A stretch of DNA of 26,405 nucleotides. Source: a virus. The position numbers and the translations under genes are program-made. Under the pieces are notes generated by a model. It was not told where the DNA came from. It saw only the letters and a program-made list of their open reading frames with translations, and searched no databases. This document shows positions 1 to 25,762 of the stretch, one piece after another (position 1 is the stretch's first letter; every line of letters begins with the position of its first letter). The DNA is taken from the IMG/VR virus record IMGVR_UViG_3300044646_001858, positions 1-26,405 of that record; one strand, 5' to 3'.

Positions 1-176
1 TCACTCCGCTTCACCCACCCCGCCCAGGTCCAGGTCTTGCGGTTGCCAGCAGATGCGGGGGTGCGGGACAAGTAGGCACTGTCACTACTATTGAATCTGA
101 GACTCCTAGAAATCCCAGTAGCAGCCGCTGCTGCAGCCGAACTAAGTAATAACTGCCGACCCGAAACTATGCTCAT
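1..176 (-). CDS. Tail/fibre-type protein, N-terminal fragment (runs off the left edge)
   Basis: This open frame begins with ATG at 176-174 and stays open to the window edge, giving about 58 residues. Its start overlaps the TGA stop of the upstream fibre gene as ATGA, which is typical of translationally coupled phage genes and supports the start. After an Ala-rich stretch (residues 12-19) comes SLRFNSSDSAYLSRTP followed by a Trp-rich segment (TWTWAGWVKRS). That pattern is familiar from the N-terminal edge of LamG/concanavalin-like lectin domains in phage tail proteins. The role is therefore probably carbohydrate or receptor binding in the tail, but this is inference because most of the protein lies outside the window. 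Confidence 0.75.
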   Translation of the reverse strand, partial: MSIVSGRQLLLSSAAAAAATGISRSLRFNSSDSAYLSRTPASAGNRKTWTWAGWVKRS

Positions 177-1156
177 GAAACAGTACCCGAACCGTAATTC
201 AGATTGCTAACAAGGTTAATACGATTAGGGTTCACGACATAATATGCCAGCATATCTATACCGCTAGCCGTCGTCGTAAGTGTTGGCGCTGTATTAGATA
301 CAAAACTCCAAGCACCGCTGTAAGTCAGCAGACGGCTGCCCACGCTGTCTTGACGGAAAATAAGGGCGCCGCACTGGCCGCCGCTAGCATTCGTCGGAGA
401 AGCTAAGGTCGAAGTCGAAGCCGTTAAAACGACTTCAAAGTTATCGCGGGCGCCAAAATTTAAAATAATAACGCCAGATCCCTGAATGGTACCGCTAGGA
501 ACACCAAAAGTCTGCGATTGAGCGACGACAGGACCCGAAATGGGGCCGCCGGTTTTATCGTATTTTCCGCCAACAGCACTTAAAGCTGCGTTGCCGCTGG
601 CTAAAGCAGCAGTTGCAACTGTATTGGCAGCACTAGCAGAAGCAGAAGCTGATGCAGCTGCAGAAATACCTGCATTACCGCTTGCAAGAGCGGTTGCAGC
701 ATTTACAAGTGCGGCATTTCCACTTGCAAGAGCGGTAAGGCCAGTCGAAATACCTGCGTTACCGCTGGCAAGAGCGGTTAAACCGGTGGAGATACCCGCG
801 TTACCACTAGCTAAAGCCGTTAAACCAGTAGAAATACCGGCATTACCGCTCGATAAAGCGGTGGCTGCATTAACAAGAGCTGCGTTGCCGCTGGCTAAAG
901 CTCCGGCCCCAACCACGAGGGCCGCATTACCGCTGGCAAGCGCAGTTAAACCGGTCGAAATACCTGCGTTACCGCTGGCAAGAGCAGTCGCGGCATTTGT
1001 AATCCCTAAATTACCGCTTGAAAGAGCATTTTGTGCAACTACAAGCGCAGCGTTACCACTAGCTTGCGCAGTATTATCTTGACCCGGTACAAGATCACCA
1101 GGAGGAAGTTGCGATGTAACACCGCTGATTAAAACTAATGCGTTGCGGACAACCAT
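173..1156 (-). CDS. Tail fibre protein with 14-residue Ala/Ser/Gly/Asn repeats
   Basis: This 327-residue protein has a short head (about residues 1-30), a long repeat region (about 31-200) built on a 14-residue period around ASGNA and ISTGLTAL, and a beta-rich C-terminal domain (about 205-327). The C-terminal domain resembles the end domains of phage fibres that carry a VLTAS...GGQCGALIFRQD...GSRLLTYSGAW pattern. The repeats suggest a fibrous trimeric shaft and the C-terminal domain a tip or chaperone-like region; this is inference from composition. The start ATG at 1156 has AGGAGG about 9 bases upstream. The gene is followed by an ATGA overlap into the next tail gene. An open frame antisense to the repeats is a composition artefact. 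Confidence 0.8.
   Translation of the reverse strand: MVVRNALVLISGVTSQLPPGDLVPGQDNTAQASGNAALVVAQNALSSGNLGITNAATALASGNAGISTGLTALASGNAALVVGAGALASGNAALVNAATALSSGNAGISTGLTALASGNAGISTGLTALASGNAGISTGLTALASGNAALVNAATALASGNAGISAAASASASASAANTVATAALASGNAALSAVGGKYDKTGGPISGPVVAQSQTFGVPSGTIQGSGVIILNFGARDNFEVVLTASTSTLASPTNASGGQCGALIFRQDSVGSRLLTYSGAWSFVSNTAPTLTTTASGIDMLAYYVVNPNRINLVSNLNYGSGTVS
590..1060. repeat. Degenerate 42-bp tandem repeats coding the fibre shaft
   Basis: The shaft-coding part of the fibre gene consists of about ten degenerate 42-bp units (14 codons), each carrying a version of ASGNA. Synonymous differences between units are frequent, so these are old or actively diversified repeats rather than a recent exact expansion. 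Such arrays can change length by recombination and so alter fibre length. Confidence 0.75.
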
Positions 1157-9796: not shown

Positions 9797-9856
9797 TACA
9801 GCATAGCTGTAACAAAAAATTTCCGCTCTAGCCGTATACTAACGTTTTCTTAGTAT
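9797..9856. other. Two small hairpins in an intergenic gap
   Basis: TACAGC-ATA-GCTGTA (9797-9811) and ATACTAA-CGTTTTC-TTAGTAT (9836-9856) are perfect inverted repeats in the 104-bp gap between two minus-strand genes. Neither has a proper T-run directly after it on the minus strand. They could modulate transcript processing. Their AT content makes chance formation quite possible. Confidence 0.35.
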
Positions 9857-9882
9857 TTCTATTTAACACTATGTTACTAAAA

Positions 9883-10140
9883 TCACCACATTTTACAAGA
9901 CCAGTAACCTGGCGTTAGCTTGCTCTTCTTTTCATCGCAGTTATGACGTGCTCTGAAGTTCTTTCTACGTTCTGGATCGTCACTACGATTCTCCATGTTT
10001 GCATCACCGAAGCGAACTAAGCGCACCTGATCGCCTTCTTTTGCAGCCACAGCGTATTGTTTCCCGCCCTGAATATCACGTTTTGGAGAGTTGTAGTTTT
10101 TGAAAACTTCTCCAGCAAGACGAATTGTCATGAGACTCAT
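9883..10140 (-). CDS. Conserved small phage protein with RARHNC and YWSCK motifs
   Basis: This 85-residue protein has a short beta start, then YAVAAKEGDQVRLVRFGD, ENRSDDPERRKNFRARHNCD and the ending YWSCKMW. The ordered set (K..V.FGD, DPERR..F.ARH.C, G.WSC..W) is a pattern I associate with a widespread short family found in the morphogenesis regions of marine phages. The two cysteines and the His could bind a metal. The Shine-Dalgarno AGGAG lies 6 bases before ATG. Its precise function is not known to me; a capsid-assembly link is only suggested by context. Confidence 0.65.
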   Translation of the reverse strand: MSLMTIRLAGEVFKNYNSPKRDIQGGKQYAVAAKEGDQVRLVRFGDANMENRSDDPERRKNFRARHNCDEKKSKLTPGYWSCKMW

Positions 10141-10259
10141 GAGCTCCTAATTGATTATACCGATTGAAACCTTAAAAAGGCATTACGATCAACTTCTAAC
10201 GTTGCAACACATGAAATCAGGGTTACTATGTCACAGTTGCTTCCTGTTAAAAGCACCAA
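10141..10259. promoter_or_regulatory. Divergent intergenic region before the HTH/Dps unit
   Basis: The gap separates the leftward small protein (start 10140) from the rightward HTH gene (start 10260). It must carry a rightward promoter for the two-gene unit, because no rightward gene lies upstream for 2.9 kb. I see no convincing -35/-10 pair or hairpin. An antisense frame here looks like a shadow. Confidence 0.3.
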
Positions 10260-10529
10260 ATGACGGACAGTAAAACCCTTCTCACGATTGCGGAAACGGC
10301 AGAACTTCTTAATTGCAGCTCTGGGTTTGTCCGTAAGCGCATCGCGCTCTCTGAAGCCAACCAGCCCGGTGGGTGGCCTAAGTCGATCTATGTAAACCTT
10401 CAACCTAATGGTGCGAAGTCGCTGTATCGCGTTAATCGCACTGCTCTCGAAGAATACCTTCAAAACGCAGCACCCGCTAAAGTAGAAACGGAAGAAAACT
10501 TCGAACCCGCTGCAGCCTGCAGCTTCTGA
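10260..10529 (+). CDS. Excisionase/AlpA-type HTH DNA-binding protein
   Basis: This 89-residue protein carries a MerR/excisionase-like HTH: LTIAETAELLNCSSGFVRKR at residues 7-26, a variable loop, a YVNL..NGAKSLYRVNR wing and the closing helix TALEEYLQNA. This is the usual architecture of HTH_17-type proteins. Lambda Xis and AlpA are the known examples. No integrase accompanies it, so transcription control is more likely than excision. Its TGA is one base from the ATG of the Dps-like gene. The two form an operon, and this protein may regulate it. No clear Shine-Dalgarno site precedes the ATG. Confidence 0.7.
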   Translation: MTDSKTLLTIAETAELLNCSSGFVRKRIALSEANQPGGWPKSIYVNLQPNGAKSLYRVNRTALEEYLQNAAPAKVETEENFEPAAACSF

Positions 10530-10530
10530 A

Positions 10531-11070
10531 ATGGTTTACTCAACTTCGAGCCCTGAAGATATTTCGGGGATGCTTCAACGGCAACCTGTTGCAGTAGAAA
10601 CAATCGAAGTTGAAACGCAAGAAAGGGTCACAGTGGAGGGACTAGCTTCTCTTCTGGTGACCCTTTCATCTGCTCTAACACATTTGTACATACAATCACA
10701 TTTAATTCATTTGAACGTTGAAGGGCCTTTATTTTTGCCCGTACACGAATTTTTAAAAGGGCAGTACGAAGCCCACGTCGATCAGCTTGATAAAACCGCC
10801 GAGTTTGTTCGCACTCTCGACGTGTTCATGCCGATGTGCGAAAAAGGACTTCTTGGAGCGTGCAAGCCTTTTAAGCATGTTAAGAGCTACGAATGTCGCG
10901 ATATGCTAATGACGTATTTAAAAAACTTAGAAGATATTGGTATGCAGGCTAAAGACGTCGGTGAGTACGCGAAAGAACTGAAAGCTCCCGATGTTGAAAA
11001 TTATATGGCCGAACTCGTGGGCGAAATGTTCAAAGCTGCTTGGTTTATCAAGAGCACTCTTCGGGGTTAA
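10531..11070 (+). CDS. Dps/ferritin-like protein
   Basis: This 179-residue protein aligns with Dps four-helix bundles (usual length about 150-190). The signature is HLIHLNVEGPLFLPVHEFLK, then DQLDKTAEFVRTL. By spacing, H60, H72, D87 and E91 match the ferroxidase ligands H51, H63, D78 and E82 of E. coli Dps. The position matching D67 is Lys76, so the iron site is incomplete. The C-terminal DVENYMAELVGEMFKAAWFIKSTL fits the last Dps helix. Dps proteins oxidise iron with peroxide, and some bind DNA. The N-terminal tail (1-38) is acidic rather than Lys-rich, so DNA binding through it is doubtful. It is co-transcribed with an HTH protein inside the virion region. Its stop codon overlaps the stop of the convergent fibre gene at TTAA. 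Confidence 0.75.
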   Translation: MVYSTSSPEDISGMLQRQPVAVETIEVETQERVTVEGLASLLVTLSSALTHLYIQSHLIHLNVEGPLFLPVHEFLKGQYEAHVDQLDKTAEFVRTLDVFMPMCEKGLLGACKPFKHVKSYECRDMLMTYLKNLEDIGMQAKDVGEYAKELKAPDVENYMAELVGEMFKAAWFIKSTLRG

Positions 11071-11804
11071 ATAAGAGCCCACGCGTCAGCCGCTCGCACG
11101 TATAATCCACTTGGAAAACTACCTGAAGTAACGGTTAAGTAAACCAAAGAACCTGACGGACTTGTGCTAGCAGCTGGAAGACCGCCAGGCAATACAGATG
11201 AAGTAACAATTGCTCCCGAAGCTGAAATAGCTCCAGAAGCCATTATTGCTCCCGAAGCTGAAATAGCTCCAGAAGCCATTATTGCTCCCGAAGCTGAAAT
11301 AGCTCCAGAAGCCATTATTGCTCCAGAAGCTGAAATAGCTCCGGATGCGGATATAGTTCCGGATGCACGAATAGCTCCAGAAGCTGTTATAGCTCCGGAT
11401 GCTAAAACAGCACCGGAAGCCATAATAGTTGAACCAGCAACAGTAGCGAAACTAGCGCTACCCGCACTCCCGGCAATAGTCGCAGAGTCAGCAAACAAGG
11501 CACCTATTTTTTGCCACGCGGATCCTGTCCAGACACGCAAGTAATATGAGCTTGTGGAGCTGTCGACCCATTGCTCCCCGACAGAATTCCCAGCAAGACC
11601 AACCGGTGAGGAGTTAGGTGCAGTTGCCCCATAATGTGAGGGACCAACTTTACGGATGTTTCCGGCAGAATCTTTTACATATAAACCTGGATCGTTTGCA
11701 CCAAAACATACTGCAGGTTCACCGGCCCCTACGGATATACCACTAGGTCTATCGGAAGAATTACCAGAACGTTTTAATAAAAGAGTAACTGGAGTAGAAG
11801 TCAT
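11067..11804 (-). CDS. Tail fibre protein with hexapeptide ASGAI repeats
   Basis: This 245-residue protein has an N-terminal module (residues 5-55, LLKRSGNSS..PSG....AGEPAV..GLYVKDSAGNIRKVGP) that resembles fibre attachment heads of T4-like and cyanophage fibres. It is followed by a YLRVWTGSAWQKIG module. Residues about 125-195 are a six-residue repeat, (S/M)ASGAI, that could wind as a beta-helix or triple-beta shaft. A short beta tip follows. It lies immediately downstream of the 512-residue structural protein. Host recognition is the likely job, inferred from architecture. Confidence 0.75.
   Translation of the reverse strand: MTSTPVTLLLKRSGNSSDRPSGISVGAGEPAVCFGANDPGLYVKDSAGNIRKVGPSHYGATAPNSSPVGLAGNSVGEQWVDSSTSSYYLRVWTGSAWQKIGALFADSATIAGSAGSASFATVAGSTIMASGAVLASGAITASGAIRASGTISASGAISASGAIMASGAISASGAIMASGAISASGAIMASGAISASGAIVTSSVLPGGLPAASTSPSGSLVYLTVTSGSFPSGLYVRAADAWALI
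11209..11352. repeat. Exact 36-bp tandem repeats in the fibre gene
   Basis: Three identical 36-bp units occupy 11209-11244, 11245-11280 and 11281-11316; a fourth (11317-11352) has a few changes. Each codes for two hexapeptides. Perfect identity at third codon positions points to recent duplication or gene conversion, unlike the older repeats of the fibre at 173-1156. There are no spacers, so this is not a CRISPR array. Confidence 0.85.
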
Positions 11805-18559: not shown

Positions 18560-19609
18560 TCAAGCGTTGAATGAGTAGGCAATGGTGGCGAAGTCAGCGT
18601 TCAGGAGTTCGAAACCTGCGTACAGGCTCCAAATCATCATGATGAAACGGCTGAAATCGTCATTGTTGTTGAGCAGCACTTGGGCGTTGTTACCGCCGAT
18701 GCCGACACCAACAGACTGCGGACCGAAGAACATACCGATAGCAGACTCGTACGAAGACGAAGTACCGCCGATGGTCGCAGTTTGGCTCTGCGAAGGCATG
18801 TTGGTCGATTCGAAGAAGCGAACACCTTCGAACACGAAACCGGTCGGCATGATCGGCTCACCGGCCACGAAGGTGGCTTGGCCGAAGCCCTGACCCATGT
18901 AGATGGCAGCGTTGGGCTGCATCGAGGACATCAGGGGGTTGATCTGCCCATTGCCGGGATAACGAGCAACTTCACGGAAGTCGCTGTTCTGGCGCAGGTG
19001 CATCAGGAAAGTAGGATCGCAAACGCAGCGATAGAAACCATCCTGGTAGGTAGGAGTGTTCCGCTTACGCAGGCTCTTCACCACGCGCAGCAGGTCATCC
19101 TTAACGTCGAACTTAGCTTGCTCGGCGTTGGCGTAGGTGAGGCTACCGACGGCGAGATCACCGGGGTAGTAGTAACCGCCTTGGCTGTCAGAAGACTGAC
19201 CCTTGGAAACAGCTTTCAGGAGTTCGTTGATGAACACCCGATCACGCCAACGACGATAGTCGTCGAGCAGAGTCAGGGAGCCGATCGACTGGTGGAAAGC
19301 GGTAAGGTTACCGGTATCCAACAAGAGGCGTTGAGCAGTAATAAGGGTTTCGCGAGCAATCTTAAAGGTGCTCGGCTGAGTGGGATCGGAAGGGTCCGCA
19401 GGACCGGTGTACTCACGAAGAGTAACCAGTACTTTGTCCTTCACAATGTTTCTGCTGTTGGCAGTACCGATGGTCTGCTCAGCAGTGCGCTCCCGAGACT
19501 CCTTAGAGCCAGGGTTGCCCCAGAAACGATAACGGTCAAGCTGAACGGTCTGGCCGGGTTGTTTGGAAAAGTCGTGAACAACACGTGTTAGGATTTGCGG
19601 GTTCAAATC
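18560..19609 (-). CDS. Major capsid protein, exon 2
   Basis: This 349-residue segment starts DLNPQILTRVVHDFSKQPGQ, continues TVQLDRYRFWG and RETLITAQRLLLDTGNL, and later has VKSLRKRNTPTYQDGFYRC, HLRQNSDFREVARYPG and GFVFEGVRFFEST. This ordered set resembles N4 gp56-like, HK97-fold major capsid proteins. An apparent GTG at 19612 could open it, but no Shine-Dalgarno site precedes that codon. Group I intron core elements end just upstream, and exon 1 at 20710-20802 supplies the missing N-terminus. Joined, the protein has about 380 residues. High G+C and codon choice suit strong expression. The structural family is inferred from pattern. Confidence 0.75.
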   Translation of the reverse strand, partial: DLNPQILTRVVHDFSKQPGQTVQLDRYRFWGNPGSKESRERTAEQTIGTANSRNIVKDKVLVTLREYTGPADPSDPTQPSTFKIARETLITAQRLLLDTGNLTAFHQSIGSLTLLDDYRRWRDRVFINELLKAVSKGQSSDSQGGYYYPGDLAVGSLTYANAEQAKFDVKDDLLRVVKSLRKRNTPTYQDGFYRCVCDPTFLMHLRQNSDFREVARYPGNGQINPLMSSMQPNAAIYMGQGFGQATFVAGEPIMPTGFVFEGVRFFESTNMPSQSQTATIGGTSSSYESAIGMFFGPQSVGVGIGGNNAQVLLNNNDDFSRFIMMIWSLYAGFELLNADFATIAYSFNA

Positions 19610-20709
19610 CACTCTCTGAGTTTTTCATCCTCAGAGCACTGACTATATCTTGCTCCCAAAATGACTCGTTACAATCGTTTTTCTCCCGACCCTGCTGTTA
19701 TTCGAGAGTTGGCATCAAAAATGCCAGATGTCGAAGCAGCAAAAATTCTAGGAGTAACAATGGTGACGTTCTATAAAGCTAGAAAGCAATTAGGTATTCC
19801 ATCTTATTTTGAGCAAACAGGTAAACGAATAAGAAAATCAGGAGAAACTTACTCTTTTATGAGTTATGATGACCGGTATTTTAAGGTCATCGATTCACCT
19901 GATAAAGCTTATTTTTTAGGTTTGCTGGCATCAGATGGAAACATAAGTCCTAGATTAACGGCTGTACGAATTGCTTTAAAAGAAGAAGATAGTCTAATTT
20001 TAGAGCAATTTAGAAAGTTTTTAGGTGAAGATGCACCTGAACTTAAAACTAAGACTTCTAAGATAAATGGGAAGCTTAGTGCTCCTCAAAAAGTCTTAGT
20101 TCTTAGTAAAAAATCCATGGTAGAAGACTTGTTGAAATTAGGAATAACTCCAAACAAATCACACACCTTAAAACTTCTTTGTGACCTCCGTGAATTTAAA
20201 AAGGACTTCCTCAGAGGCGTGTGGGACGGCGACGGATCCATAACAGAACGACGCTTTAAAGTAACCACTGCTTCTGAAGAATTTGCCAACCAACTTCAAA
20301 CTTGGATTCTCGATGTAAGTGCAGTCAAACTCCTTATAAAAAAGGAAACTACACAACGTGGAAAACAATTGTTTAATCTTCCAGGTTACATCAGGGACGC
20401 TAAAGCAATTAGAGCTATTTACGGAGAATCTAAGTTAGGTATTGAACGTAAATTAAAAAATTACGAACAATACTGGGAGCCCCGGCGCTAGTGGACTTCA
20501 TAATCCGGTCTGGATCGTATGTCCTAGTCGATGAACCTTCCACTCATTCCTGAGAGGCTTGGCTGCTGATTGCCCCAGAATCCAAACTTTTTAACCGTTC
20601 ACGCTTACTGTCACCAGTTACGTTGTAGGGTTTGGATCTTTTAAGAAGGGTTTCCAGCAATTCACCGGGTTGTCACTTTCTGATTACTCAGAAAGGCGGC
20701 TGGGTTGTC
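19610..20709 (-). ncRNA. Group I intron in the major capsid gene
   Basis: Read on the minus strand, the classical core elements occur in order. They are P (GTGAATTGCTGGAAACC, 20649-20665), Q (GGCAATCAGCAGCCAAGC, 20557-20574), R (GGTTCATCGACTAGG, 20523-20537) and S (AAGATATAGTCAGTG, 19637-19651). P4 pairs TGCTG with CAGCA; P7 pairs GACTA (R) with TAGTC (S). Hairpins fit P2 (CTTTCTGA-GTAA-TCAGAAAG, 20676-20695), P5 (ATCCAAAC/GTTTGGAT) with a GTGA-capped ACTG/CAGT stem inside, and P9 (CTCTGAG/CTCAGAG, 19614-19636). A small GGA/TCC hairpin after R suggests subgroup IA. The 3' end at G19610 and the 5' end after T20710 are placed by reading frame; each could be off by a few bases. Confidence 0.85.
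19661..20491 (+). CDS. LAGLIDADG homing endonuclease, antisense within the intron
   Basis: This 276-residue protein has two LAGLIDADG helices: FLGLLASDG at residues 85-93 and FLRGVWDGDG at 183-192. Each carries the acidic catalytic residue (D92; D189/D191), so one chain can cut DNA as a pseudodimer. An N-terminal HTH (about 20-45, MPDVEAAKILGVTMVTFYKA) may help DNA recognition. The gene lies between the R and S intron elements, in the P8 loop region, but on the strand opposite to the intron. It must therefore be read from its own promoter, and no good Shine-Dalgarno site precedes the ATG. AT-rich codons unlike the capsid exons support mobile origin. Its expected target is the intron-free capsid gene. 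Confidence 0.85.
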   Translation: MTRYNRFSPDPAVIRELASKMPDVEAAKILGVTMVTFYKARKQLGIPSYFEQTGKRIRKSGETYSFMSYDDRYFKVIDSPDKAYFLGLLASDGNISPRLTAVRIALKEEDSLILEQFRKFLGEDAPELKTKTSKINGKLSAPQKVLVLSKKSMVEDLLKLGITPNKSHTLKLLCDLREFKKDFLRGVWDGDGSITERRFKVTTASEEFANQLQTWILDVSAVKLLIKKETTQRGKQLFNLPGYIRDAKAIRAIYGESKLGIERKLKNYEQYWEPRR

Positions 20710-22104: not shown

Positions 22105-23016
22105 TCAGGCTTGATCCAGGAAAAGAAGCTTGCTGCGGAAAGCTTCAGGACCCATTTGGCTCAGGTAGCGCCAAGCTTGCTCGGGGCTCTGATTCATGAC
22201 TTGGCCAAAGCCTTGCCATTGGATTTGGGGATCAGCGCTAGGAGCGCCAGCACCAGCCGAAGCCGGAACAGCAGGCAGCTGGTCGTAGCGGGGCTGGTAA
22301 TTTTCGGTAGGAGCAGTCTCATCCACAGGGTAAACCTCGGTAAAGAACCGATTGGTGTAATCGGCCAGATGATCCGGGTCAGTAAGGATGGTCTCCATAG
22401 CCAGACCGCGAGCTGCAACATTCTCCAGCACCGAGTGCTGCTGAATCAGTGCATCCTCAAGCACCGTGGCATACTGATTCAGAATGCCGGGAGCTTCAAT
22501 GCCGAAGTGATTAACGACGGCGGTTGTTGCGGGACTTAACTGAGCGCTCTGTTGCGCGTCCGTAGAAGTCGGAGAGGAAGTTTGGGTCGTATACCCGTTG
22601 CTGTACGAGGTCGGCTGAGCCGATGGTGCCTGGTAAAGATACGGTTGGGCCAGTGAACTCTGACTGTACAGTTGAGTATCCGGCATTTGTGCCGGGCTCT
22701 GCTGATACTGTGCTGTCTGGCTGGGGGACGGGGAGAGGCGTGAGACCACCCGTTCCAAACTGCCCATCGCTGCTTCCCACGGATTGGACGGGGAGTAAGC
22801 CGACGGATACTGGCTGGACTGGTTGCTGGTAGAAGGGGCCGTAACCTGTTGTACCGGCGACGGCGCTTGGGGCATAGTTGCCGAAGGCGCCCCCTGGGTA
22901 GTTGCCACCCATTGCGGGTAGGCGGTTGAGCCCATATCCGCCGAGGGAGCGGCCTGAGGGGCTGCTACCGCCGGGGAGACCGGGCTCGGGATCGAAGCTG
23001 GGATCTGCTGGCTCAT
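22105..23016 (-). CDS. Scaffold-like protein overlapping the portal gene
   Basis: This 303-residue frame has a Pro/Gln/Ser/Ala-rich first half (residues 1-160) and a helical second half (about 163-303). The second half includes EAPGILNQYATVLEDALIQQ, VAARGLAMETILTD and a final QAWRYLSQMGPEAFRSKLLF. Position between portal and capsid genes, low complexity and a helical C-terminal region suit a capsid scaffold; this is inference. The first 168 residues overlap the portal C-terminus by 506 bases in another frame. No start codon lies near the portal stop, so translation must begin inside the portal gene. ATG 23016 has only a weak GGGCAG ahead; ATG near 22769 has GGGAAG ahead and is an alternative. 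Confidence 0.65.
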   Translation of the reverse strand: MSQQIPASIPSPVSPAVAAPQAAPSADMGSTAYPQWVATTQGAPSATMPQAPSPVQQVTAPSTSNQSSQYPSAYSPSNPWEAAMGSLERVVSRLSPSPSQTAQYQQSPAQMPDTQLYSQSSLAQPYLYQAPSAQPTSYSNGYTTQTSSPTSTDAQQSAQLSPATTAVVNHFGIEAPGILNQYATVLEDALIQQHSVLENVAARGLAMETILTDPDHLADYTNRFFTEVYPVDETAPTENYQPRYDQLPAVPASAGAGAPSADPQIQWQGFGQVMNQSPEQAWRYLSQMGPEAFRSKLLFLDQA

Positions 23017-24748
23017 AGCTGCCCGAGTAAGTCAGTTCTTGCGCAAGGTGGTCAAACGTCCTATAAAGCAAGGGCGTTAGGTTTAGCCGAGGATCAGCCG
23101 CTAAGGGCGTATTCGGCGCGAGTGGATGTGGCGCTTGCAACATCTGATTCAATAATAGTAGAAATTGCTGAAAAGCGCCCTGAGTTTGTTGAATCATTCG
23201 GAAGGGAAAACCCTTCAACATTTCTGCACGCTCAGTATCCGTTTTATCCGGGAACAAATACTTCAGAGCTTCGACGCTATCAACACCAAGCTCCTGAAGA
23301 TTTCGAACAACAATAGATTTTTGATTTACGTCATAGGCGGTGTCTTCATAAACATCACCTTGGAACCTATAAGTAACTTCCCGATCACCATCAGGTGGTA
23401 GACCGAAAACACCACGTGGGACTTTGTTCTCGGTGACAGCAGTCTGAATAGCAACCGTAACTTGATCTTCGTACTTATTAATTTTCTTTTGATACCTAGC
23501 AACCGACTCTTCTGTTTCTTCTTTAGGTGCGTTAGGGGGTAGCATCCCCATAACCTGAATAAAACTCTCGCGGAAAACCTGCTCTTGATGGTAGAGAATC
23601 ATCTCCAACAACTTGCAGAATCCGTAGGTCAAGAAGCTCTTGTTTTTACGAAGAGCTGTCGCCTGAGCCCGACCCATCAGACCCTTAATCTCCGTGGCAG
23701 TGGCACCAGCCGAGATCGAAATCTCATCGACGCCACCTAAAGCAGTACGAATCTCTTCACGCAGTAATAAAGCGTAACGATTCATGTCCCCGTTTACCGG
23801 GTCCGGAGTCATGTAGCCCACGCGGTCGGAGGGCTCGACGTTCGCAATAATCCGAGGAACTCTTAATCCGCCAAGAGCGGAATTAGAGCCGAACGGTTCA
23901 GCTACCCGAGTAGACGGAGAATCGATGCCACCAAAACCACTTTGACTACTGATTGTGGGCCTGAAAGTCCGATCAGCGTCAGAAGCTTCGACAAGATCGC
24001 TACGTGGACGCGAACTAATCAGCGTGGGATTGCCAAAGAACTCAATATTCTTCGCAATATTCGAAACCATCTGATCATGAAGCACAATCTGCTCCATGAA
24101 CGGTTCGAATTCTCCTTCGCCGTCTGTTCCGCTTGCGTTCGGCTTGTTTAAAACCTCAACCGCAGGAATAAATCCAAGCGTGTTTGGACGCCTATTTTTT
24201 GGCGTTAAAACAGTGCCAGGGTCGAGCTCAAAACTTAATTCACTATTGGATTCAAACTCAGAAATTGTATCTGCAGTAATCGACAGCCTTACATAGCGTT
24301 TATTTTGCCCGTAAGTCTCTGAAGGCAACCCGAGAGCCGAATTGCGAACTTTATAGCTGTAGATAATGATGACTTCTTCAATCTCGCCGTTAATATCGTG
24401 ATAAACCCTGTACTGGTTTTTATTAAAGAAATAAATTTGATATTTGAGCTTTTCATCTGGACGGAAGTAGAACAAACCACAGCCGTCGATCAGAAAATTG
24501 CGGATAACGGCTGGAAAACGAATGTCCAGCTTGTTAAGCGCAATTAAATCCTGTAAAAACTTGTTTCGAGCTTTGTAGGTGTCTTGCTCGCAGTAGAAAA
24601 ACAGACCCTTCTTCATCATCAGCAGCGTCATTTGCTGCAAATGACTCAGAACAACCATAGTGGCCGCCTGTTTACTGCGATCCTGAGTGCGAGCCGACTC
24701 TAGGATCTCATTAAAACGTTGACGGACACTAAGGTTGTCGGCGGGCAT
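22511..24748 (-). CDS. Portal protein
   Basis: This 745-residue protein has an alpha/beta N-terminal half and a long helical middle. Its middle region reads LREEIRTALGGVDEISISAG then ATEIKGLMGRAQATALRKNK, and then KLLEMILYHQEQVFRESF (about residues 330-395). This resembles the stem and wing of SPP1-gp6/T7-gp8-like portals: an Arg/Gly turn, a GATATEIKG block and long helices. It lies at the head of the capsid module next to the scaffold-like gene. The last ~170 residues (from about 578) are Pro/Gly/Ser-rich and coincide with the overlap. The ending RVYDPNFLSDFYGRATERSV is followed by a basic tail. Portal rings form the DNA channel at one capsid vertex. Family assignment rests on pattern and context. 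Confidence 0.7.
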   Translation of the reverse strand: MPADNLSVRQRFNEILESARTQDRSKQAATMVVLSHLQQMTLLMMKKGLFFYCEQDTYKARNKFLQDLIALNKLDIRFPAVIRNFLIDGCGLFYFRPDEKLKYQIYFFNKNQYRVYHDINGEIEEVIIIYSYKVRNSALGLPSETYGQNKRYVRLSITADTISEFESNSELSFELDPGTVLTPKNRRPNTLGFIPAVEVLNKPNASGTDGEGEFEPFMEQIVLHDQMVSNIAKNIEFFGNPTLISSRPRSDLVEASDADRTFRPTISSQSGFGGIDSPSTRVAEPFGSNSALGGLRVPRIIANVEPSDRVGYMTPDPVNGDMNRYALLLREEIRTALGGVDEISISAGATATEIKGLMGRAQATALRKNKSFLTYGFCKLLEMILYHQEQVFRESFIQVMGMLPPNAPKEETEESVARYQKKINKYEDQVTVAIQTAVTENKVPRGVFGLPPDGDREVTYRFQGDVYEDTAYDVNQKSIVVRNLQELGVDSVEALKYLFPDKTDTERAEMLKGFPFRMIQQTQGAFQQFLLLLNQMLQAPHPLAPNTPLAADPRLNLTPLLYRTFDHLAQELTYSGSYEPADPSFDPEPGLPGGSSPSGRSLGGYGLNRLPAMGGNYPGGAFGNYAPSAVAGTTGYGPFYQQPVQPVSVGLLPVQSVGSSDGQFGTGGLTPLPVPQPDSTVSAEPGTNAGYSTVQSEFTGPTVSLPGTIGSADLVQQRVYDPNFLSDFYGRATERSVKSRNNRRR

Positions 24749-24786: not shown

Positions 24787-24927
24787 TTAGCCTTTTTGCT
24801 CCATTTTGCGCTTCATTTTAGCTTTTTTAGCTTTGTGAAGGGCTTCTTTGTGCTTTTCTTTTTTGTCTTCTGAAGCGTTTTTCTCCTCAAAATGCTTACG
24901 GAGACCTTCAGGCATACGATCAGCCAT
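24787..24927 (-). CDS. Small very basic protein (46 aa)
   Basis: ATG at 24927 overlaps the stop of the glycosyltransferase gene (ATGGCTGA). The 46 codons give MADRMPEGLRKHFEEKNASE followed by a Lys/Ala/His-rich helix (KEALHKAKKAKMKRKMEQ). RMPEGLRKHF.EK is a pattern I associate with other short proteins in phage head regions. The basic helix may bind nucleic acid. It fills the gap before the portal gene. Confidence 0.65.
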   Translation of the reverse strand: MADRMPEGLRKHFEEKNASEDKKEKHKEALHKAKKAKMKRKMEQKG

Positions 24928-25762
24928 TTGGAAGCAAATACTCTCTTACACGATCTATCTTAAACAATTCTGGAGGCAAAAGATCATGCGAATACGGAAC
25001 TAAAACGTGATCTTTACGCCCTAACGGGTCAGTCCCACCGGCTTCTGGTTGATATTGCTCGATAAAATCAAGCATTTCCTGGCTATAGGCGGGTGCTACA
25101 GCATTAGGGATGTCGTCATAGCAGTGAGAGAACGATGTTACCTTACGTTTTTTACGATTTGCATCCCCCATCCATGAAAAATGCCACCCTGCATCGCAGT
25201 CACCAACGATATAGTCGTTTGGATTGCAACGAATTTGTGAAAGAGTCTGCTCCAGATGCTCGTGGAGCACAACTGTTCCGCAAGTCCAATTTGTCGGAGG
25301 TTTAGAGGAATCCTGTTCGGGATCAACAACCCTCAAATCCGCACGTCCATAAAACATAGGCATAGACAGTCGGATACAACGCTCGGGATTTGCTGTTGCA
25401 AGTTCGACTGCCTCTAACAAAGCTGAAGGTTTTGGAATCTCGTCTACGTCACTAAAGAAGAAAACAGAATCCGGAGGCGTCATCCGCATACCCACAGCAA
25501 GTGCATCGCGTTGGGCGTATTCCCGCATCCAAGGATTAAACACTTCTTCGGGAGAAGGTAGTTCCACATGGAGAACCTGAAGTTTATCTTCAGGCAAACC
25601 AAGCTCACGAATTGTATCTACGCACGTAAAAGGCTTAGGATCGCCCTTAAATGTTCTGTTTGCATCAGTAATAATAAAACCGTCTACAACGTCTTTGAGG
25701 ATGTTGTAGCGAAGCTCTAACAGCTCTTTTTCGTCAAAATAAAGAAAGCAATCAAAGAGCAC
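24920..25762 (-). CDS. Glycosyltransferase family 17 (GnT-III-like)
   Basis: This 280-residue protein matches family GT17. It has MLFDCFLYFDEKELLELR at the start (known in this family as FDCF...E...L..R), WMREYAQRDAL near residue 78, FFFSDVDEIPKP at 100-111 with the DxD-type metal/nucleotide site, and GWHFSWMG near 192. GT17 enzymes transfer N-acetylglucosamine to glycans; related phage and bacterial proteins act on other sugars. The gene lies between small virion-region genes next to the portal. It may modify virion proteins or the host surface. Substrate is unknown. It overlaps the next small gene by eight bases. Confidence 0.85.
   Translation of the reverse strand: MLFDCFLYFDEKELLELRYNILKDVVDGFIITDANRTFKGDPKPFTCVDTIRELGLPEDKLQVLHVELPSPEEVFNPWMREYAQRDALAVGMRMTPPDSVFFFSDVDEIPKPSALLEAVELATANPERCIRLSMPMFYGRADLRVVDPEQDSSKPPTNWTCGTVVLHEHLEQTLSQIRCNPNDYIVGDCDAGWHFSWMGDANRKKRKVTSFSHCYDDIPNAVAPAYSQEMLDFIEQYQPEAGGTDPLGRKDHVLVPYSHDLLPPELFKIDRVREYLLPNG

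What the first reader, a model, noticed from the sequence alone, without database searches (positions are those of the whole stretch)
10531..11070. Phage-encoded Dps/ferritin-like protein with an altered iron site
Spacing of H60, H72, D87 and E91 matches the Dps ferroxidase ligands, but the Asp expected at position 76 is Lys. A phage-borne iron/peroxide protein could protect DNA from oxidative damage during infection of a photosynthetic host, or scavenge iron for progeny. The Lys change may alter or abolish iron oxidation and leave a shell or DNA-packing role.
Basis: partly seen in the sequence, partly recalled or inferred. Interest (0 to 1): 0.75.

Follow-up and report, generated by a model that had tools for sequence, protein, structure and literature searches.

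The report
Cyanophage mini-ferritin with conserved iron ligands
This phage, a relative of a known cyanophage, carries a gene for a Dps-type iron-handling cage protein whose four iron-binding residues are intact, so the unusual lysine beside the site is a family trait rather than evidence of a dead iron site.

Summary
ORF 10531-11070 (+, 179 aa) is a Dps-type mini-ferritin by profile, solved-structure sequence and predicted fold, with H60, H72, D87, E91 at the Dps ligand positions and K76 at the site-B carboxylate position. The inference from K76 is weak. In Pseudomonas PA0962 Dps, a close solved relative, only the residues matching H60, H72, D87, E91 bind iron. The carboxylate is also absent from 11 of 62 cellular and 50 of 71 other viral Dps sampled. 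The four ligands are invariant in 102 of 102 family sequences and in both of those sets. The family, present in 22 of 25 contigs with a near-identical head protein (16 of 16 of at least 35 kb), never has Asp/Glu at 76 (K 77, G 23, N 1, T 1). It also lacks the Trp beside the iron site (0 of 102; 62 of 62 in cells) and two pore aspartates. The N-tail is acidic here, against DNA packing. Most likely it is a working but retuned iron/oxidant cage. Phage Dps is already annotated (S-EIV1, phiEco32-like, Streptomyces, Lactobacillus phages), so this is a lineage-wide variant of a known kind. Activity, assembly and virion presence are untested.

The parts
10531..11070 (+). Dps-type mini-ferritin gene, 179 aa; predicted helices 35-62, 68-95, 104-110, 122-149, 153-178
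10531..10635 (+). N-terminal tail, residues 1-35, mostly low confidence in the model, net charge -4; many relatives begin MT[FY][ST]x[ST]F, degenerate here (MVYSTSS)
10708..10710 (+). H60 codon: site-A iron ligand position (Listeria H31, PA0962 H37)
   Evidence: PMC10002758, PMC7762939 passages
10711..10713 (+). L61 codon: replaces the Trp found in 62 of 62 cellular Dps sampled
10744..10746 (+). H72 codon: site-B iron ligand position (Listeria H43, PA0962 H49)
10756..10758 (+). K76 codon: position of the water-linked site-B carboxylate; K or G in nearly all of the family, never D/E
10789..10791 (+). D87 codon: site-A iron ligand position, supplied to the partner subunit in Dps
10801..10803 (+). 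E91 codon: iron ligand position shared by sites A and B
10837..10839 (+). C103 codon: 102 of 102 in the phage family, 0 of 62 in cellular Dps sampled
10260..10529 (+). small HTH_17/excisionase-like protein directly upstream (26.7 bits, just under the cut-off of 27); co-transcription is inferred
   Evidence: its cluster is present in 54 of 81 loci
11067..11804 (-). convergent gene with ASGA repeats whose 3' end overlaps the Dps stop by 4 bases; conserved neighbour
   Evidence: 55 of 81 loci
18560..19612 (-). major head protein, 67% identical to S-EIV1; places the phage near that lineage
22511..24748 (-). portal-like protein, 42% identical to S-EIV1

Best explanation
The gene makes a Dps-type mini-ferritin in the infected cell. 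Subunits pair so that H60 and H72 of one and D87 and E91 of the other bind Fe(II). The cage oxidises and holds iron, using peroxide or oxygen, and so removes Fenton reagents that would damage replicating phage DNA in a photosynthetic cell. K76 sits at the water-linked site-B position and L61 replaces the nearby Trp; together they probably change the second iron site, the oxidant or the radical handling rather than abolish activity. Shown here: fold, ligand identity and invariance, retention in close relatives, purifying selection. Inferred: dimer geometry, 12-mer, iron oxidation, timing, purpose and the photosynthetic host of this particular phage.
For: Predicted fold is Dps with the short BC helix. 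Top Foldseek matches are Dps chains 8ff9, 2c41, 3iq1 and 2chp, TM-score by target 0.83-0.93; VIA Z 21.8, rmsd 1.5, 145 and 147 aligned to 2chp and 2c41. The four ligands are invariant in 102 of 102 family members, 62 of 62 cellular Dps and 71 of 71 other viral Dps. In PA0962 exactly these four bind iron (PMC10002758, passages). Nostoc Dps4, with Asn at the K76 position, still oxidises Fe(II) with O2 (PMC6675082, passages). The gene is in 22 of 25 contigs chosen by head protein; median dN/dS 0.054.
Against: The Trp about 3 A from Fe1 in PA0962 is Leu or Phe in 102 of 102. The positions of two pore aspartates of cellular Dps are Ala and Asn in 73 and 74 of 76, though E161 is acidic in 66 of 76. 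NCBIfam Dps models score far below their cut-offs (29 against 114 bits). By fold alone, Dps-like proteins with a ferritin-type site inside the subunit are tied (2vzb Z 21.7), so only the ligand positions point to an intersubunit site. The Nostoc Dps4 precedent showed no use of H2O2. No activity, assembly or expression data exist.
Confidence: 0.55

Rival explanations
1. A metal-binding cage that no longer mineralises iron: one metal binds at site A and stabilises the dimer, while K76 and the altered pore prevent turnover. It would sequester metal or act as a scaffold.
For: Site A ligands are invariant while the site-B carboxylate, the Trp and two pore aspartates are lost. In PA0962 site A also takes Na and Mn (PMC10002758, passages).
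Against: H72, whose known role is site B, is also invariant: 76 of 76, 22 of 22. Pore charge is partly kept by E161, and another viral Dps group that keeps the Trp shows the same D-to-N pore change in 50 of 71. Gly as well as Lys occurs at 76, so no specific blocking residue is selected.
Confidence: 0.2
2. A partner-docked or virion-borne mini-ferritin: a conserved N-terminal peptide tethers the cage to a phage or host component, for example inside the capsid.
For: In 45 of the 76 distinct family sequences, those starting MT or MV, residues 4 and 7 are conserved (S or T 45, F 43 of 45) ahead of a variable linker (T2 was part of the selection). In the window's part of the family the gene lies among structural genes, with the same neighbours in 54-55 of 81 loci. 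Some uncultured phages have Dps-like domains in proteins named prohead protease.
Against: The window's own copy has lost the pattern (MVYSTSS). Of the 22 largest neighbour clusters only Dps itself holds both a window ORF and an S-EIV1 ORF, so the S-EIV1 gene has another context. The pattern was found in no other ORF of the loci then held (64 of 64 matches were Dps).
Confidence: 0.12
3. A DNA-compacting protein that packs phage or host DNA without iron chemistry.
For: PHROG 3636 is named DNA binding protein. 16 of 75 complete family tails are net positive, four of them +5 to +8.
Against: The window's tail is net -4 and 57 of 75 complete family tails are negative. The iron ligands are among the most strictly kept residues. 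Tail charge is indirect evidence; DNA could be bound elsewhere.
Confidence: 0.07
4. An iron store that collects host iron, for example released from photosystems, for progeny or phage metalloenzymes.
For: Same cage chemistry; cyanobacterial hosts are iron-rich (general knowledge, no call).
Against: No iron enzyme showed among the ten window proteins scanned with Pfam, which is only part of the window and of the genome; no iron content data.
Confidence: 0.06

Closest known systems
Synechococcus phage S-EIV1 AHV82153.1, DNA-binding ferritin-like protein
   Same: 55% identity over 125 residues; four ligands, L61, H82 and C103 kept; the only phage record matching the window's head and portal proteins
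   Different: Gly at 76, tail net +1, different gene neighbourhood
Pseudomonas aeruginosa PA0962 Dps (8ff9)
   Same: fold, four iron ligands, Tyr at the Y79 position; first-ranked Foldseek match
   Different: Glu53 at the K76 position, Trp38 at the L61 position, Asp134 in the pore where the phage has Asn157 (residue numbers counted by me on the alignment)
Nostoc punctiforme Dps4 / T. elongatus DpsA, His-type ferroxidase centre
   Same: no binding carboxylate at the K76 position; cyanobacterial setting (PMC6675082, passages)
   Different: there His replaces the site-A Asp and a third subunit adds a His; the phage keeps Asp (D87)
Synechococcus phage S-SRM01 QPX48251.1
   Same: cyanophage Dps with the four ligands and no carboxylate at 76 (Gly)
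   Different: keeps Trp at 61; a different phage group (Kyanoviridae)
Dps-like proteins of Grimontviridae (phiEco32-like), Streptomyces, Bacteroides and Lactobacillus phages
   Same: phage-encoded Dps; the four ligands are present in the six I read (Salmonella 7-11, Privateer, ECO319P1, Kenrey, Evy, BS162P1)
   Different: Asp or Glu at 76 and Trp at 61 in those six; Lactobacillus phage sequences were not read

Membership tests
Dps / mini-ferritin family (broad) | ferritin-like four-helix bundle with short helix in the BC loop | tested here: met
   helices 35-62, 68-95, 104-110, 122-149, 153-178; VIA Z 21.8 to MrgA and TeDps
Dps / mini-ferritin family (broad) | sequence match to the family model | tested here: met
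   PF00210 45 bits, cut-off 24.5; phrog_3636 4e-26
Dps / mini-ferritin family (broad) | His, His, Asp, Glu iron ligands at Dps spacing | tested here: met
   H60, H72, D87, E91; 102 of 102, 22 of 22 contigs chosen by head protein
Dps / mini-ferritin family (broad) | ligands meet across the two-fold dimer interface | not testable with these tools
Dps / mini-ferritin family (broad) | dodecameric shell | not testable with these tools
   no complex prediction or experiment
Dps / mini-ferritin family (broad) | acidic ferritin-like pore | tested here: inconclusive
   A152 and N157 replace Asp (73 and 74 of 76), E161 acidic in 66 of 76
Dps / mini-ferritin family (broad) | Fe(II) oxidation | not testable with these tools
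   needs an assay
Canonical Dps ferroxidase centre (five residues, PMC6675082) | Asp or Glu at the site-B water-linked position | tested here: not met
   K76; 0 of 102 family members acidic
Canonical Dps ferroxidase centre (PMC6675082; Trp from PMC10002758) | Trp next to the first His (radical sink); a usual feature, not one of the five residues | tested here: not met
   L61; 0 of 102 Trp against 62 of 62 in cells
His-type cyanobacterial Dps | His in place of the site-A Asp | tested here: not met
   D87, 102 of 102
DNA-binding Dps (E. coli type) | positively charged N-terminal tail | tested here: not met
   residues 1-35 net -4
NCBIfam Dps equivalogs | score over curated cut-off | tested here: not met
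   29.2 bits against 114; 26.4 against 300; 25.3 against 170
S-EIV1-type phage Dps (grouping made here) | one clade apart from cellular Dps | tested here: met
   76 phage-type rows, four from MAG contigs, against 62 cellular rows: one branch, SH-aLRT 100, positions 61 and 76 left out; quick tree, few columns, some long cellular branches, no cyanobacterial rows known to be in it

The most novel reading that the evidence does not exclude
A phage-only class of mini-ferritin, kept throughout a widespread cyanophage lineage, with a Trp-less, carboxylate-poor second iron site (H-H-[K/G]-D-E) and a rebuilt entry pore, so that it handles oxidant or metal differently from cellular Dps, and is docked by its N-terminal peptide to a phage or virion partner.
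Probability: 0.12. Interest if true: 0.7.

Novelty: new variant of a known kind. Interest (0 to 1): 0.42.

Why it matters
A mini-ferritin kept in nearly every longer contig of this phage group implies that iron or peroxide control matters during infection, probably of photosynthetic cells. The natural set (Glu, Gln, Met, Gly, Lys at one position; Trp, Leu, Phe at another; four ligands constant) is a ready-made test of which residues around a Dps iron site set oxidant choice and radical handling.

Tried and rejected
Rejected: K76 as a one-off change or sequencing error. It is the family rule: K 77, G 23, N 1, T 1 of 102. The G count is inflated because one fetch pattern (HKFLGEQY) contained that Gly, and also H72; without that fetch it was K 69, G 5, N 1, T 1 of 76.

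Rejected: K76 as proof of a dead site (literature). Rejected: recent pick-up of a host gene. The phage rows form one clade apart from 62 cellular Dps and identity to Dps on 20 plasmid records is 25-28%. No cyanobacterial genomes were sampled on purpose, so an old cyanobacterial origin is open.

Led nowhere: promoter scan of 9800-11300, 0 sites against 1.7 expected. Photosynthesis families in 18 related contigs: none over cut-off; one weak match each for Chloroa_b-bind (3.5e-4) and AOX (2.0e-4), none for Photo_RC; the AOX search had no positive control genome. The S-EIV1 genome paper (ISME J 2015) is not held, so whether its authors discuss this protein or found it in virions is unknown to me. 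The library holds 0 papers with S-EIV1 and ferritin and 4 with cyanophage, Dps and ferritin. Of those four I looked at passages of PMC6669764; the other three I saw only as titles and abstract starts. PMC5332604, PMC8557907 and PMC10452541, which name S-EIV1, have no passage on ferritin or Dps among the terms I searched in each.

Biases and drops: one search kept the best 80 of 244 and used the pattern QSHL[IL]HLN, which holds H57, H60 and L61; the 22 contigs chosen by head protein are free of it and agree. One search used 25 of the 80 head-protein loci, all over 25 kb but one (L137); all have a head protein at least 95% identical to the window's, so the prevalence is that of close relatives. 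The cellular set is the best-scoring 30 or fewer loci of each of three searches (59 of 299, 36 of 288 and 5 of 292 genomes matched), minus phage-type loci; one of 63 (L093) gave no match and was dropped. In one search, 48 of 124 hits were duplicates or under 135 residues. The phage set includes four rows from MAG contigs; L087, L088 and the non-row L091 carry other genes like these phages, L089 and L090 match only in Dps. Of the phage records hit (165 and 105, some of them short unannotated records), I read seven.

Full report
What is there. The window is a virus record of 26,405 bases. ORF 10531-11070 encodes 179 residues. It belongs to the ferritin family by Pfam (1.4e-11) and to phage family phrog_3636, named DNA binding protein (4e-26; 45 of 45 relatives scanned match it). 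Sequence search of solved structures puts Dps-family chains first: Campylobacter 3kwo (deposited as putative bacterioferritin), Pseudomonas PA0962 8ff9, Helicobacter CAIP 5lbh.

Fold. AlphaFold2 with 45 aligned relatives gave mean pLDDT 84.7, with residues 1-29 nearly all under 50 and the core mostly above 90. Foldseek ranks PA0962 Dps first, then T. elongatus, Vibrio and B. subtilis (MrgA) Dps. Clustering of the ligands across the dimer could not be tested.

Iron site. The alignment to Listeria Dps 1qgh runs from model 36 on chain 7, so H60, H72, K76, D87, E91 correspond to 31, 43, 47, 58, 62 if no chain residue is skipped before E91. A review names Glu62, Asp58 and His31 as the ligands of the observed iron, with His43 the only other potential ligand (PMC7762939, passages). 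In PA0962 two irons are held by H37, H49, D64 and E68 alone (PMC10002758, passages); these align with H60, H72, D87, E91. A study of Nostoc Dps4 counts five residues in the canonical site, says the Glu/Asp at the K76 position reaches site B through water, that Dps4 has Asn there, and that Dps4 oxidises Fe(II) with O2 but showed no use of H2O2 (PMC6675082, passages). So K76 touches the weaker, second site.

Comparison. In the phage family, 102 distinct sequences: ligands 102 of 102; position 61 L 83, F 19; position 76 K 77, G 23, N 1, T 1; C103 102; H82 99. In another large viral Dps group, 71 distinct: ligands 71 of 71, with H60 and Trp forced by the fetch pattern; position 76 acidic in 21. 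Among 18 fully invariant positions of the 141 examined in 76 sequences, finding H72, D87 and E91, none of them in the fetch patterns, has a chance of about 0.002 if invariant positions were random (my arithmetic). Positions 152 and 157, Asp in 61 and 52 of 62 cellular Dps, are Ala and Asn here (73 and 74 of 76), while E161 is acidic in 66 of 76; the other viral group also has Asn at 157 in 50 of 71.

Phage lineage. The only phage record with a hit to this protein as query is Synechococcus phage S-EIV1, which is also the only hit for the head protein (67%) and portal (42%). A scan of IMG/VR found 244 stretches that encode a relative, of which the best 80 were kept. Of 25 contigs chosen by head protein and length, 22 have the gene, including all 16 of at least 35 kb; the three misses are 25-31 kb long. 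A metagenome study places S-EIV1 in a genus-level group with 3.3% of mapped marine cyanophage content and hli and ptoX genes (PMC5332604, passages). My own search of 18 related contigs found no match over cut-off for Chloroa_b-bind, AOX or Photo_RC, so the photosynthetic host rests on S-EIV1.

DNA binding. The tail, residues 1-35, is net -4 in the window and negative in 57 of 75 complete relatives, zero in 2 and positive in 16. Among the 45 family members starting MT or MV, residues 4 and 7 are strongly conserved and the following linker is variable, which hints at a binding partner; the window copy has lost Phe7.

Known or new. Phage Dps is not new: 165 phage records match a cellular Dps query at E 0.01, and Lactobacillus phage authors discuss a protective role (PMC6669764, passages). 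What I have not seen described is the joint loss of the site-B carboxylate and the Trp in S-EIV1-like phages; my literature searches were made, and the S-EIV1 paper itself is not held. I file it as a mini-ferritin of the Dps family in the broad sense, not as a canonical-centre or DNA-binding Dps.

On recount I narrowed the prevalence claim to close relatives, disclosed that T2 of the N-terminal motif was part of the selection, added the tied 2vzb match and the weak sub-cut-off photosynthesis matches, and marked the Listeria residue mapping as conditional.

Noticed in passing
L142/L038, L141/L031, L153/L039 (each pair from one contig): Head protein is 98-99% identical to the window's while Dps on the same contig is only 59-65% identical; Dps diverges much faster or is exchanged, although dN/dS among close pairs is low.
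   Followed up: no
window 10531-10551; loci: Many relatives share an N-terminal peptide MT[FY][ST]x[ST]F ahead of a variable, mostly acidic linker; the window copy is degenerate.
   Followed up: partly
BFVD A0A6J7WPK9, A0A6J7XDU5, A0A6J7WIS1: Predicted structures of uncultured phage proteins named prohead protease contain a Dps-like part, suggesting fusion of a mini-ferritin to a capsid-maturation protein; the names were not checked.
   Followed up: no
   Followed up: partly
window 19661-20491 +: LAGLIDADG homing endonuclease-like ORF (2.1e-11) next to the major head protein gene.
   Followed up: no
window 24920-25762 -: Glycosyltransferase family 17-like gene (2.2e-16) near the portal gene.
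   Followed up: no
window 173-1156 - and 11067-11804 -: Proteins with many ASG repeats, with long antisense ORFs that may be a by-product of the repeats.
   Followed up: no
L089 and L090 (Euryarchaeota MAG SP67): Phage-type Dps genes on MAG contigs with no other match to the phage loci compared; viral misbinning or real cellular copies undecided.
   Followed up: partly
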